Part shown: positions 1,528 to 34,484 of the stretch, in pieces | How positions within the stretch are numbered: the stretch's first letter is position 1 | Layout: every line of letters starts with the position of its first letter | Source: Alphaproteobacteria bacterium | GTDB lineage: Bacteria > Pseudomonadota > Alphaproteobacteria > UBA9655 | Assembly: GCA_020049895.1 (NCBI GenBank) | Contig: JAGVLE010000021.1 | Span: 1-34,484, forward strand | DNA length: 34,484 nucleotides | Direction of reading: 5' to 3' | Program-made: the position numbers and the translations under genes | The notes under the pieces: model-generated | The model's input: only the letters and a program-made list of their open reading frames with translations | Databases searched by the model: none | Told to the model about the DNA's origin: nothing

Positions 1528-4500
1528 ATGGCGATTCAATTTGCACGTTGCGAATATATCTCCCGAAGCACGGGTGGGAATGCCTGCCGGAAAGCAGCCT
1601 ATAACGCGCGGACGGCTATTGTTTGTGATCGCACAGGAGAAACATTCTCGTATCAAGCCAAGGGAGATGTTTCCCATCATGAGGTTCTCTTGCCTCCAGG
1701 GGCTCATCCAAAATTTGCAGATAGCTCTACTCTTTGGAATGAAGCTGAGAAATGCGAGAAACGGAAAGATAGCCAGGTGGCAAAGGAGATCGTTCTTGCT
1801 CTTCCTGATGATGCCCAAGTCGCCTTAGAGGACCGCATTGAGCTGGCTCAGCGGTTTGCACGGGAGAACTTTGTTAACCATGGGGTGGCTGTTCAAGTCG
1901 ACCTCCATTCCCCAGACCATGATGCCTGTCCTCGCGAAAGCGGGGAACTTAATTGGCATGCCCATTTGTTGATTGCCACACGTCGCTTCTCTGAAGATGG
2001 AAACACCTTCTCTCTCAAGAAAGCCACGGATCTAGATCCTGTGGTGAGTGGAAGCCGCCATACGGTCGTTGAAGCCACTATTTGGGGAGAGAGTTGGCGG
2101 GATATTCAAAACAGCTATTTTGAAGAGAAAGGCTATGACCTAAAGGTGGACCCACTTGGAATCCTTCCTCAAGAACATTTAGGCCCTGTGCGGATGCGTC
2201 ATCATATGAACCAAGCCATTGAGCGGTCTTATGAGCTCCAAAAGGCGAATGAACAGCTATCCTGCCATCCAAAATCTATTCTTGAGGTACTTACACATCA
2301 TCAAGCCATCTTTACGGAACACGATGTTGACCGTTTCTTGACGAAGCATGCGGGTCAAGTAGATCATGCAGACCTGAAAGAAAATGTTCTCAGTCACCTT
2401 TCTGTTATTCCCCTGTATGATAAGGAAACGGGAGAAAAGACACCTTTCTTCACAACACATGAGGTACGTCAAGAAGAAGAAAAACTCTTGCGCTTTGCGG
2501 ACTCTATTTCAAAACGTTCGTCTCACGCTCTTACGACAGCAGCTATTGAGAAAGGCGTGGAAGGACGGGCATTCACTCAGGAACAGAAAGCCGCTTATGA
2601 GCAGTGTGTGGGATCAGAGCACAACCTTTCTATCATTCAGGGCCGTGCTGGCGTAGGGAAAAGTTATGTGCTCTCAGCTATTTGTGAGGCTCATAAGGAA
2701 TCTGGATTTCGTGTCATTGGGCTTGCGCCTACTCATAAGGTGGCAACAGCCTTAAAGGATAGTGGTTTTGAAGCAACCAACACCTGTCATGGGGTTGTGT
2801 TTTCTCACAAGGATAAACCACTGCCCTCAAAAGCCCTCGTGGTCGTTGATGAAGCCGCCATGATGGGGAGTTCTCTGTCCGTGGAGCTGTTTAATATCAT
2901 TAAGAGAAGTGATGCCAAGCTCATCCTTGTAGGAGATGACCGTCAATTGAGTTCTGTTGATCGATCAGGCGCCTTCGGGCTTTTGGCAAAGCGATTTGGG
3001 GCTGTAGAACTCCAAGATGTTCGCCGTCAAGCCATTGATTGGCAACGCGCAGTATCTGAACATCTGTCTCAAGGTACCATTAAGGAGGCCGTTTCTTTGC
3101 TGCAGGAGAACCAAGGTATTGTGTGGGCAGCGACAAAAGAGGATTCTCTCGCTGCCCTCCTAAAAGACTGGAACCAAGGTGAAGGGCTACGGCAAATCCT
3201 TGCGCCAAGGAATGTGGATGTTGACGCTCTGAATCAAGGGGCTCGAGACATCTTACGCTCCCAAGGCAAGTTAGGAGACCTGGAGATTACCTGCACAACC
3301 CAAAGAGGACAAGCAACCTTTGCGAAAGGAGATCGTATCCAGTTTACAAAAACAGATAAAGCCCAAGGGCTCGAAAATGGTCGGTTTGGCGTGATTGACC
3401 GCATCGATTCCAATACCAAGATAATCCATGTGACTTTAGATAATAAAGAAGCACTGGAGATTGACCCAACTACCTACACAGGCCTGCGTCACGGGTATGC
3501 AGCAACAGTCTATAAGGCCCAAGGCTCCACCCTTGAGCGGGCCTATGTTCTCCATGGCAAAGCCACGAATAAAGCCACCAATTATGTGGCCCTCACTCGT
3601 CAGACACAGTCTTTATCTCTTTATGTCGCCAAAGAAGAAACGCCAACAGAACGCGCTCTTGCCCATCAAATGAGCCGGGACGCTAACAAAAGCTCGAGCC
3701 TTCTGTTTGATGCGCAGCGGGATAAGGAACGGCGTCAGGAAGATAAGCCCTTAACGACGCAGCTGAAGCATGGAGTTGAGGATGTGGTGACCAAGATAAC
3801 GGATGCCTTCCATTCTAACAGGAAATTCTATCAATTTGAGAAACAGACGGAACGATCATCAGAAGTGACATTAACTCACAAACCCACAAAGGAATTTTCG
3901 AGAGAGACGTCTGCTTCCTTCAAACTTGAAAAAGAGGAAAACCCCAATAGTTGCTGGATGGACTCCTCTTCTGCGTATCAAAATGATCCTGAAGAGAAAG
4001 AAAACAATCGTCAAATTCGTAGACCTTCTCTTTGGCGTAATCCTGAGAAAAATCAGCCAGAAAAATCCTTACCTCAAAAAGGATACAAAGGATTCTGGAG
4101 AGATCCCACGTCTTCCGTTCAGAAGAGAAGTGAGCCACAAAAAGGGTATAAAGGATTTTGGAGAGAAAAATCGTCGATTGCCAATCAGGAAGAAAGGAGA
4201 ACAACCTCTTTTCAGAAAGAGCCGCATCTTGACCCTATGCCCACCAAAATTTTGGAGGAAGTTAGTGAACATATCAGAGATCAACTCCACGTTATTAAAA
4301 GCTATGCAGGAACTGGTCTTGCTCATAAAGCCAAGGATGAGCTCCATCGTTATATGGAAAATATTGAAACCCATACCTCTCTTGCTCCACTCCTTCGTGA
4401 TCACGATCTTCATCTTATGAAAGAAGTCGACCATATTTTCAAAGAGCAAGAACATCAGTTGGAGCATAGCCGTGACAAAGGGATGGATTTTGGGATGTAG
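1528..4500 (+). CDS. traA: MobQ/TraA-type conjugative relaxase-helicase, 990 aa
   Basis: This protein would nick oriT, stay covalently bound to the strand and unwind the DNA during conjugative transfer. The N-terminal MobA/MobL relaxase domain (about 1-220) carries the metal-binding HxH in NWHAHLL (His144, His146), with catalytic Tyr candidates near the N-terminus (Tyr10, Tyr25). The central superfamily 1 helicase domain has Walker A GRAGVGKS (372-379), Walker B VVVDEAA (Asp441, Glu442), a GDDRQL motif and a late YAATVYKAQGS motif with a VALTR box. The C-terminal third is charged and has WR repeats (SLWRN, GYKGFWRD, GYKGFWRE) and a helical tail. AAGGAG lies about 7 nt before ATG. Length fits the TraA family of Ti plasmids and Rickettsiales integrative elements. 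No mating-pore genes are present, so transfer would need a helper T4SS. Confidence 0.93.
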   Translation: MAIQFARCEYISRSTGGNACRKAAYNARTAIVCDRTGETFSYQAKGDVSHHEVLLPPGAHPKFADSSTLWNEAEKCEKRKDSQVAKEIVLALPDDAQVALEDRIELAQRFARENFVNHGVAVQVDLHSPDHDACPRESGELNWHAHLLIATRRFSEDGNTFSLKKATDLDPVVSGSRHTVVEATIWGESWRDIQNSYFEEKGYDLKVDPLGILPQEHLGPVRMRHHMNQAIERSYELQKANEQLSCHPKSILEVLTHHQAIFTEHDVDRFLTKHAGQVDHADLKENVLSHLSVIPLYDKETGEKTPFFTTHEVRQEEEKLLRFADSISKRSSHALTTAAIEKGVEGRAFTQEQKAAYEQCVGSEHNLSIIQGRAGVGKSYVLSAICEAHKESGFRVIGLAPTHKVATALKDSGFEATNTCHGVVFSHKDKPLPSKALVVVDEAAMMGSSLSVELFNIIKRSDAKLILVGDDRQLSSVDRSGAFGLLAKRFGAVELQDVRRQAIDWQRAVSEHLSQGTIKEAVSLLQENQGIVWAATKEDSLAALLKDWNQGEGLRQILAPRNVDVDALNQGARDILRSQGKLGDLEITCTTQRGQATFAKGDRIQFTKTDKAQGLENGRFGVIDRIDSNTKIIHVTLDNKEALEIDPTTYTGLRHGYAATVYKAQGSTLERAYVLHGKATNKATNYVALTRQTQSLSLYVAKEETPTERALAHQMSRDANKSSSLLFDAQRDKERRQEDKPLTTQLKHGVEDVVTKITDAFHSNRKFYQFEKQTERSSEVTLTHKPTKEFSRETSASFKLEKEENPNSCWMDSSSAYQNDPEEKENNRQIRRPSLWRNPEKNQPEKSLPQKGYKGFWRDPTSSVQKRSEPQKGYKGFWREKSSIANQEERRTTSFQKEPHLDPMPTKILEEVSEHIRDQLHVIKSYAGTGLAHKAKDELHRYMENIETHTSLAPLLRDHDLHLMKEVDHIFKEQEHQLEHSRDKGMDFGM

Positions 4501-29797: not shown

Positions 29798-30115
29798 ATG
29801 CAAAAAAAACTTCTGTCGATCCTGTTAATGAGCCTTTGTCTTTTGCAGGCCAATACTGCAGTTAGTGCACAAAAGAACAAATCCGAAATAAAAGCTGATG
29901 TTCGTAATGGCTGTCCTGCCTGGAAGGAAGGATTTGACGTAGTATGTGAACATAACGTTAAGGCCTATTTGAAGAAATGTGCCAATGCTCTACGATTGGG
30001 GGCCTGCAAATCCAAATGTGTAGACCGCTGTTGGGAAAAAAATGCAGTTGCTTATTGTTGTAGTTGTGTTGAGAGTCCTTCGTTGAAAAAAAATGTAGGC
30101 AAGAAAAAACACTAA
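29798..30115 (+). CDS. Secreted small Cys-rich protein, 105 aa
   Basis: Signal peptide MQKKLLSILLMSLCLLQANT (cleavage about residue 24, AVSA). The mature part of about 81 residues has nine cysteines (NGC, VVC, KKC, GAC, SKC, DRC, YCCSC) and a Lys-rich tail (KKNVGKKKH). The spacing suggests disulfide-bonded knots stable outside the cell. No family is recognised. Small Cys-rich secreted proteins in host-associated bacteria are candidates for effectors or antimicrobial peptides, but there is no direct evidence. The ribosome-binding site (AGAG) is weak. Confidence 0.75.
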   Translation: MQKKLLSILLMSLCLLQANTAVSAQKNKSEIKADVRNGCPAWKEGFDVVCEHNVKAYLKKCANALRLGACKSKCVDRCWEKNAVAYCCSCVESPSLKKNVGKKKH

Positions 30116-33240: not shown

Positions 33241-33290
33241 AGGCTAAGACCTCTTAAGTTTCTTGAAGAAACAAAAAGAAGACTTAGCCT
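33241..33290 (-). terminator. Long two-stem hairpin after the first secreted-protein gene
   Basis: AGGCTAAG (33241-33248) pairs with CTTAGCCT (33283-33290), and inside it GTTTCT pairs with AGAAAC around TGA. It starts 25 bp after the stop of the leftward gene at 33315, so it is probably its transcription end or an RNA-stabilising 3' structure. No long T-run follows. The same structure recurs at 33835-33885. Confidence 0.7.
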
Positions 33291-33314
33291 ATTGGTGGTT
33301 AGACCGATTAAATG

Positions 33315-33707
33315 TTAGTTAGCGTCTGCTGTTGGCGCTGGAATATTCGATCCAGTTCCAGTAATAGTATAGGCAGTTCCGTCAACGTTAACAGTCTTTC
33401 CAACATTTGTCTTGTCGCCAACAGTATAGGAAGGTCCGCTCTCACCGCTAACAGTATAAGTAGTTCCTTTTGTTGGTGTTGCTGGAATATTCGAGCCAGT
33501 TCCAGTAATAGTATAGGCAGTTCCATCAACGTTAACAGTCTTTCCAACATTTGTCTTGTCGCCAACAGTATAGGAAGGTCCGCTCTCACCGCTAACAGTA
33601 TAAGTAGTAGGCGTATGCGTAGGTTTAGGAGGTTTATTTGCATTTGCAGATAGGGACACAAGAGAGACTCCTGCGATGAGAAGTGTTAGTACGGTAAGAT
33701 TTTTCAT
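33315..33707 (-). CDS. Secreted tandem-repeat protein, 130 aa (cassette A)
   Basis: Signal peptide MKNLTVLTLLIAGVSLVSLSANA (cleavage about 23). The mature part is a Pro-rich linker (KPPKPTHTPTT) and two nearly identical 48-residue units (TYTVSGESGPSYTVGDK..., with GKTVNVDGTAYTITGTGSNIPA), rich in Thr, Gly and Val and likely β-stranded. The repeat is also nearly perfect at DNA level. There is no membrane anchor. No family is recognised; extracellular adhesive or surface-bound role is possible. The ribosome-binding site is AAAGGAAAC with ATT before ATG. Its 5' end, signal peptide and 3' hairpin match the gene at 33924. Confidence 0.75.
   Translation of the reverse strand: MKNLTVLTLLIAGVSLVSLSANANKPPKPTHTPTTYTVSGESGPSYTVGDKTNVGKTVNVDGTAYTITGTGSNIPATPTKGTTYTVSGESGPSYTVGDKTNVGKTVNVDGTAYTITGTGSNIPAPTADAN
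33337..33608. repeat. 144-bp tandem repeat inside secreted-protein gene
   Basis: The segment starting GCTGGAATATTCG at 33337 recurs at 33481. The 128 bp to GTATAAGTAGT match except for two single-base changes; the first copy is followed by a 16-bp spacer. The period of 144 bp is 48 codons and keeps the frame, so copy number could vary by slippage or recombination. Confidence 0.9.
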
Positions 33708-33834
33708 AATTGTTTCCTTTCAAATTAAGTTTTTCTAAAAAAAGAGATTGCCATATTATTAACAACAATACGATAAATAAGTAAAAAATGTGTTAAAGTA
33801 TTTTATATGAACGGAACAATACTTCAAATAAGAA

Positions 33835-33885
33835 AGGCTAAGTCCTCTTTAAGTTTCTGGAAGAAACAAAAAGAAGACTTAGCCT
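33835..33885 (-). terminator. Long two-stem hairpin after the second secreted-protein gene
   Basis: AGGCTAAGTC (33835-33844) pairs with GACTTAGCCT (33876-33885), with TCTTT/AAAGA continuing the stem and an inner stem GTTTCT-GGA-AGAAAC. It follows the stop at 33924 by about 38 bp. Both it and the sequence before it (CGATTAAATG) are near-copies of the element at 33241-33290. Confidence 0.75.
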
Positions 33886-33923
33886 ATCGGTGTATTATCG
33901 TCACTTAGATCGATTAAATGTCA

Positions 33924-34325
33924 TTAAGCACCAGCTGGTGGCTTTGGCGGTGTTGGCATTGTTGGTGTTGGTGTGACTGTCTTTTTGTCTTCTACTGCTT
34001 CTGCAGGGATAAGCCCCTCATTTGCTCTCGCCGTGACATCAGCTGAGATAGTAGCTCTATCCGTTTCTGTGGCTTTACCTGTTTGAAAGTCTGTTATTTT
34101 GCTTTCTACTGCTTCTGCAGGCTTCTCTCCATCAGAAGCTCTCTTTTCGATGTCAGCTCCCTTAACTTTTTTCTCAGCACTTCTTTTCTTAATTTTCTCA
34201 ATCTTTTCTTTGAAAGGAGTGTCCTTTTCTTTGAGAAAAAACTTAGTACCTTCAGCATTTGCAGCTGTGCCAACAAGAGATATTCCTGCGATGAGAAGTG
34301 TTAATACGGTAAGAATGTTTTTCAT
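33924..34325 (-). CDS. Secreted charged repeat protein, 133 aa (cassette B)
   Basis: Signal peptide MKNILTVLTLLIAGISLVGT (cleavage about 24, AANA). The mature part has a Lys/Glu-rich helix (FKEKIEKIKKRSAEKKVKG), two related segments (ADIEKRASDGEKPAEAVESK and ADVTARANEGLIPAEAVEDK) and a Pro/Thr-rich tail (TPTPTMPTPPKPPAGA). It has no membrane anchor and no recognised family. I chose ATG 34325 over 34331 because the pattern AAGGAAA-x-x-ATT before ATG copies that of the neighbouring gene at 33707. It shares signal peptide, upstream site and 3' hairpin with that gene but not the mature part. Confidence 0.75.
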   Translation of the reverse strand: MKNILTVLTLLIAGISLVGTAANAEGTKFFLKEKDTPFKEKIEKIKKRSAEKKVKGADIEKRASDGEKPAEAVESKITDFQTGKATETDRATISADVTARANEGLIPAEAVEDKKTVTPTPTMPTPPKPPAGA

Positions 34326-34387: not shown

Positions 34388-34407
34388 TATATAGCAAAGT
34401 CTATATA
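34388..34407. repeat. Palindrome TATATAG-6-CTATATA before the right transposase
   Basis: TATATAG (34388-34394) and CTATATA (34401-34407) surround CAAAGT. It lies about 50 bp upstream of the transposase start, where the insertion-sequence end and its TA target duplication would be expected, or it could be an operator of the secreted-protein gene. Not decided. Confidence 0.35.
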
Positions 34408-34455
34408 AATCGATTATAATATTGTCATAGCAAGAAAAGAAGGATAAGAAGAGCT

Positions 34456-34484
34456 ATGACATACAGTGTGGATTTTCGACAGAA
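34456..34484 (+). CDS. IS630-type transposase, N-terminal fragment (partial at window end)
   Basis: ATG at 34456, preceded by GAAGGATAAGAAG, starts MTYSVDFRQ, the usual opening of the helix-turn-helix of IS630-type transposases (typically MTYSIDFRKK). Only 9 full codons are in the window. With the fragment at the left end, the window is bracketed by IS630-type elements in the same orientation. Confidence 0.65.

What the first reader, a model, noticed from the sequence alone, without database searches (positions are those of the whole stretch)
33241..34325. Twin secreted-protein cassettes: same ends, different middle
Genes at 33315 and 33924 share the upstream site (AAGGAAA-x-x-ATTATG), nearly identical signal-peptide DNA (CCTGCGATGAGAAGTGTTA), the CGATTAAATG stretch after the stop and a 50-nt two-stem hairpin. 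Their mature regions are unrelated in sequence. This looks like duplication followed by exchange of the exported part, as in variable surface or effector cassettes. The two sit beside an IS630-type element.
Basis: partly seen in the sequence, partly recalled or inferred. Interest (0 to 1): 0.75.

Follow-up and report, generated by a model that had tools for sequence, protein, structure and literature searches.

The report
Shared signal peptides, rewritten secreted proteins
One small bacterial genome carries at least 14 scattered genes that begin with the same export signal but go on into unrelated, often repeat-built secreted proteins, so it seems to keep one launcher and rewrite what it launches, as some plant-pathogenic bacteria and venomous snails do.

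Summary
The two window genes (33315-33707 and 33924-34325, both on the minus strand) share ribosome-binding site, signal-peptide DNA and a 3' hairpin, and have unrelated mature parts. They belong to a family of at least 14 genes (up to 18 with weaker members) on 10 contigs of this 1.18 Mb genome. Over all 91 pairs the signal peptides are clearly related (mean z 7.2) and the mature parts are not (mean z -0.2). A second pair on contig 20 is cleaner: flanks and signal peptide are 95-97% identical and the middles unrelated. Simulation excludes point substitution at the rate shown by the ends. Eight of 14 mature parts are more repetitive than every control segment, so repeat amplification is the likeliest engine. 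No donor copies were found, so cassette exchange is not supported. The leader was found in none of 58 relatives (14 of the same genus) or 288 other genomes of the class. The transposon is a multi-copy element at contig ends, and its IS630 identity rests on about 10 residues. It works like the SVM-signal effectors of phytoplasmas but is not a member. Function (secreted effector or surface protein) is inferred.

The parts
33315..33707 (-). Gene C15a: 130-aa secreted protein (signal peptide 23 aa, mature 107 aa)
   Evidence: ORF with AAGGAAA ribosome-binding site
33639..33707 (-). Signal peptide MKNLTVLTLLIAGVSLVSLSANA, shared module
   Evidence: 59/69 nt identical to C15b; profile hit E 2.2e-12
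33337..33608 (-). In-frame tandem duplication of a 144-nt (48-codon) unit inside the mature part of C15a
   Evidence: TRF 1.9 copies, 98% matches; by far the strongest tandem repeat of the window
33241..33290 (-). 3' hairpin of C15a with an inner stem, followed by a U-rich stretch; probable terminator
   Evidence: -23.8 kcal/mol, z -5.2
33924..34325 (-). Gene C15b: 133-aa secreted protein, K/E-rich mature part with a T/P/A-rich tail
   Evidence: ORF, start set at MKNILTV by the ribosome-binding site
34254..34325 (-). Signal peptide MKNILTVLTLLIAGISLVGTAANA, shared module
   Evidence: profile hit E 2.7e-12
33835..33885 (-). 3' hairpin of C15b, near-identical to that of C15a
   Evidence: -33.4 kcal/mol, z -9.1; pattern found only at these two genes
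34390..34484 (+). Left end of a multi-copy insertion sequence (putative IS630 family) cut by the contig end; transposase starts at 34456 (MTYSVDFRQ...)
   Evidence: 11 matches in the genome, 10 of them shown to end at contig ends

Best explanation
The two genes belong to a lineage-specific family of small Sec-exported proteins. SHOWN: at least 14 members with a common leader module (ribosome-binding site plus signal peptide, ending in A-N/D-A), dispersed among housekeeping genes and in tandem pairs or triplets; two sets also share their own 3' hairpin region; the mature parts share no detectable homology outside a small Cys-bearing subgroup; the change is confined to the stretch between cleavage site and stop codon; eight of 14 mature parts are unusually repetitive. 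INFERRED: genes duplicate with their ends; the ends are kept by constraint (export, translation, termination); the exported stretch is repeatedly lost and regrown in frame by tandem amplification of short seeds (12, 15, 21, 39, 144 nt), then drifts or is selected. The products reach the periplasm or outside and probably serve as a varied set of surface or released proteins facing a host cell or competitors.
For: A profile from 9 leaders gave 14 hits at E<0.01 in this genome, five of them not used to build it, and none in 58 relatives; the enlarged profile gave 14 hits at E<1e-4 here and none in 288 other genomes of the class. 91 pairs: leader z mean 7.2 (93% above 3), mature z mean -0.2 (1% above 3). 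C20a/C20b: 5' flank 179/188, leader 77/81, 3' flank 116/120, mature 48/81. The 3' region of C20a/b recurs only at one further family member, C28. Leader dS is 0.12 (C20) and 0.25 (C15), whereas losing the mature homology by substitution needs d of about 1 or more (C20) and about 2 (C15). Repeats: 8 of 14 mature parts beat all 60 control segments; TRF arrays 144x1.9, 21x3.8, 12x4, 39x3.1, 15x11, 12x9.8. No leaderless copies of the tested mature parts.
Against: C20a, C23 and the Cys class (C17, C16, C2a) are not repetitive, so repeat growth cannot explain all members. The three C2 genes have alignable mature parts, that is, ordinary divergence. No strain of the same species was available, so turnover was not seen happening. 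Export is judged from the leader alone; secretion beyond the periplasm and any function are untested. AlphaFold models of the two window proteins are of low confidence (pLDDT 43 and 63).
Confidence: 0.55

Rival explanations
1. Cassette exchange by recombination: the common ends serve as homology arms and middles are swapped in from donor copies, as in Anaplasma msp2/p44.
For: Same ends and different middles in C15a/b, C20a/b and C28.
Against: No donor: none of the nine tested mature parts has a second or leaderless copy in this 96%-complete genome or in 189 relatives (the window genes also). The change boundaries sit at the cleavage site and stop codon, where selection would put them.
Confidence: 0.15
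2. Leader capture: a duplicated module of ribosome-binding site plus signal peptide lands in front of unrelated or non-coding DNA, and new secreted proteins arise de novo.
For: Dispersed single members share only about 20 nt upstream plus the leader; many mature parts are low-complexity with no database relative.
Against: The best-preserved sets (C15a/b; C20a/b/C28) also share their 3' ends, so there whole genes were duplicated and only the middle changed.
Confidence: 0.15
3. Ordinary duplicates under strong diversifying selection by point substitution, with short indels.
For: Change is confined to the exported part; leaders show moderate constraint (median dN 0.41 against dS 0.78).
Against: Needs roughly 8-fold (C15) to 8-20-fold (C20) the rate of leader and flanks; repeats show that the change is structural.
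Confidence: 0.1
4. Old duplicates whose ends are kept alike by gene conversion while the middles, too different to convert, diverge slowly.
For: Would also give near-identical ends and unrelated middles; C20a/b lie in tandem about 510 bp apart.
Against: Across dispersed members leader dS is high (median 0.78), so there is no general homogenising; it does not explain the repeats.
Confidence: 0.1
5. Decaying or functionless secreted ORFs: relaxed constraint, repeats as slippage noise.
For: One member (C28) has been cut inside its leader by an insertion sequence; many products are low-complexity.
Against: Fourteen leaders and reading frames are kept in a reduced genome; arrays have periods that are multiples of three and stay open.
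Confidence: 0.1

Closest known systems
Phytoplasma SVM-signal proteins (Pfam PF12113; SAP11, SAP54 and others)
   Same: Small secreted proteins of a reduced-genome, host-bound bacterium; shared signal-peptide motif, rapidly evolving proteins, association with mobile elements (PMC3984173, PMC8026896).
   Different: No PF12113 match in the members scanned; Gram-negative alphaproteobacterium; leaders unrelated in sequence; repeat-grown mature parts; no shown effector activity.
Anaplasma msp2/p44 expression cassette
   Same: Conserved 5' and 3' ends around a variable middle (PMC2789410).
   Different: msp2 draws on many pseudogene donors into one expression site; here many dispersed full genes and no donors.
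Prochlorosins and other leader-conserved precursor peptides; conotoxins (from own knowledge)
   Same: Constant leader, unrelated cores within one genome.
   Different: Here the leader is a Sec signal peptide cut at A-x-A; no modifying enzyme was looked for or seen beside the genes examined.
Tandem-repeat secreted proteins of Ehrlichia and Wolbachia (from own knowledge)
   Same: Repeat-built proteins in intracellular alphaproteobacteria.
   Different: Those do not form a family held together by the signal peptide alone.

Membership tests
Phytoplasma SVM-signal proteins | Match to PF12113 (SVM signal sequence) | tested here: not met
   Pfam scans of 13 of the 14 core members plus divergent ones, no such hit at E<1 or E<0.1
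Phytoplasma SVM-signal proteins | Common signal peptide with variable mature part | tested here: met
Phytoplasma SVM-signal proteins | Secreted into the host with an effector activity | not testable with these tools
   needs experiment
Anaplasma msp2-type antigenic variation | Conserved ends, variable middle | tested here: met
Anaplasma msp2-type antigenic variation | Silent donor copies of the middles in the same genome | tested here: not met
   (draft genome, 96.4% complete)
Mycobacterium 19-kDa antigen (PF05481) | Score above the curated cut-off in a single domain, lipoprotein Cys | tested here: not met
   C15a reaches 23.5 bits (cut-off 23) only as the sum of two matched stretches, its near-identical repeats; no lipobox and no Cys in the protein
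IS630-family element (neighbour) | Complete DDE transposase of the family | tested here: inconclusive
   All copies examined are cut at contig ends; only about 10 residues (MTYSVDFRQKV) visible
Sec/SPI-exported proteins | Positive n-region, hydrophobic core, A-x-A cleavage site, no lipobox | tested here: met
   Rule-based check on the members and alignment; no trained predictor was available

The most novel reading that the evidence does not exclude
This bacterium runs a generator of new secreted proteins: a fixed launcher (translation start, signal peptide, in some sets also the terminator) is copied around the genome, and the exported stretch is repeatedly erased and regrown from short in-frame seeds by tandem amplification, giving each species or strain its own set without any donor repertoire.
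Probability: 0.3. Interest if true: 0.8.

Novelty: new variant of a known kind. Interest (0 to 1): 0.6.

Why it matters
Families held together by the signal peptide alone are known from phytoplasma effectors and animal venoms; a clear bacterial case outside the phytoplasmas, with pairs whose ends date the change, makes the question 'how is a new secreted protein made' directly measurable. The pairs C20a/b and C15a/b show that the exported part was replaced while the flanking DNA changed little (a few percent in C20a/b). It also gives a search recipe (profile the leader DNA and ignore the rest) for hidden secretomes in endosymbiont genomes whose mature proteins have no database relatives.

Tried and rejected
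Leader DNA pattern in 84,980 genomes: no match (the own genome may be left out there). Relaxase against plasmids: broad hits, best Mesorhizobium (about 43%) and Megaera (about 38%). Window region against plasmid DNA: none. Mature C15a in phages: only E of about 0.4; mature C15b in plasmids: none. Solved structures for C15a: none. AlphaFold of both window proteins: low confidence, not used. Rejected: PF05481 membership of C15a (summed repeats) and PF11437 Vanabin-2 for C17 (below cut-off, Cys-driven).

Full report
WHAT WAS CHECKED. The window is the whole of contig C15 of a draft genome (1,178,087 bases, 35 contigs, 96.4% complete). It has 14 congeners among the genomes held, belongs to a class with many genomes, and carries type VI secretion genes (TssF E 9e-174, TssG E 7e-77). 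I think it is a host-bound alphaproteobacterium, possibly of the Holosporales, where type VI secretion is near-universal (PMC11909080), but this is inference.

THE TWO GENES. C15a (33315-33707, minus) encodes 130 aa, C15b (33924-34325, minus) 133 aa. They share the ribosome-binding site, the signal-peptide DNA (59/69), the ten bases after the stop and a 3' hairpin (75/80 over the aligned 3' block). The hairpins are far more stable than shuffled sequence (z -5.2, -9.1), and the pattern occurs nowhere else in the genome within three mismatches. The mature parts align no better than codon-shuffled versions (z 0.6). C15a's mature part is a 144-nt in-frame tandem duplication at 98% identity, by far the strongest tandem repeat in the window.

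THE FAMILY. A profile of nine leaders found 14 places at E<0.01 in this genome, five of which had not been used to build it, and none in 58 relatives. Rebuilt with 14 leaders it found 14 at E<1e-4 here and none in 288 other genomes of the class; within the family only weak hits with E of 0.046 or more appeared. Besides the window pair the members are: C20a, C20b, C20c (contig 20; the last runs off the contig), C28, C26a, C33a, C33b, C23, C19, C17, C16 and C2a. Weaker relatives are C2b, C2c, C33:18284 and C26b. Mature parts are Gln/Arg repeats (C33a), His-rich (C19, beside TssF/TssG), Ala/Pro repeats (C20b), 39-nt and 15-nt repeats (C20c), Gly-rich with an Asp tail (C33b), Ser/Asn-rich (C26a), or Cys-bearing (C17, C16, C2a-c, C33:18284). 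Pfam gives nothing convincing for any of those scanned.

SAME ENDS, DIFFERENT MIDDLE IS GENERAL. For all 91 pairs of members, leader DNA scores z 7.2 on average with 93% above 3; mature DNA scores -0.2 with 1% above 3. The neighbours C20a and C20b are the best case: 5' non-coding flank 179/188, leader 77/81, 3' flank 116/120, mature 48/81 ungapped (alignment). Their 3' region recurs only at one further member, C28, so three genes share both ends and no middle. The breakpoints lie within about ten bases of the cleavage site and the stop codon in both pairs.

NOT ORDINARY DIVERGENCE. Synonymous divergence of the leaders is 0.12 (C20a/b) and 0.25 (C15a/b). In simulated substitution of the real mature sequences, with one length change, homology remains obvious at these distances (median z 10-12 and 31-32), and the observed z values are reached only near d=1 (C20) or d=2 (C15). 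Point substitution would have to run about 8-fold or more faster in the middle. Gene conversion of the ends could mimic this and is kept as a rival.

LIKELY ENGINE. Eight of 14 mature parts have a self-repeat score above every one of 60 control segments from neighbouring genes. TRF gives arrays of 144 nt x1.9, 21x3.8, 12x4, 39x3.1, 15x11 and 12x9.8, all multiples of three. No second or leaderless copy of the nine mature parts tested was found in this genome or in 189 relatives. Regrowth by in-frame tandem amplification fits these facts better than swapping from donors. It does not explain the Cys class, where the three C2 genes show ordinary divergence with a conserved Cys pattern. I therefore hold repeat-driven rewriting as the main process, not the only one.

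THE MOBILE ELEMENT. The end at 34390-34484 occurs 11 times; the ten copies examined all stop at contig ends. Only about ten transposase residues can be read; MTYSVDFRQKV resembles IS630-type starts (own knowledge), but the family is not proven. One copy sits inside the leader of C28 and so broke that gene; another lies about 65 bases upstream of the C15b start codon. Adjacency may only mark dispensable DNA.

COMPARISON. The closest functional likeness is the SVM-signal family of phytoplasmas, where effectors share a signal-peptide motif (PF12113) and evolve fast (PMC3984173, PMC8026896). No member scanned here matches PF12113, so this is a likeness, not membership. The msp2 cassette of Anaplasma has conserved ends and a variable middle but draws on pseudogene donors (PMC2789410), which were not found here.

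LIMITS. Draft assembly; no second strain; no trained signal-peptide predictor; the AlphaFold models are unusable; the function is inferred.

Noticed in passing
L083:10305 and 10765, L082:7565, L085:10543 and 16345, L087:13422, L080:9353, L086:12111; also C10:36326 and C13:21434: An interspersed element starting CCTCTGCAAAAGGTATTTGTGTG, followed by differing modules, lies within 1 kb of a family member in 7 of 10 copies seen in 213 kb (12% of those bases; binomial p 3e-5). Large intergenic gaps and the choice of loci may explain this.
   Followed up: partly
L081:6383-7572 (contig C2): Tandem triplet of small secreted Cys proteins with a shared pattern of six Cys and one Trp and related leaders; no Pfam match.
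   Followed up: partly
L079:7733-7903 (contig C19): A His-rich family member (HNTGKPHHHHKKHSGHGHHNHSAHTQHKH) sits directly upstream of type VI secretion genes tssF and tssG.
   Followed up: partly
window 29798-30115, plus strand: Another small secreted Cys-rich protein (105 aa) with a different leader and no Pfam match.
   Followed up: no
L086:12829-13089 (contig C28 end): A family member is cut inside its signal peptide by the same insertion sequence that ends the window contig.
   Followed up: yes
window 1528-4500, plus strand: TraA-type relaxase/helicase, about 43% identical to Mesorhizobium and 38% to a Megaera plasmid: a conjugative remnant or element on this contig.
   Followed up: no
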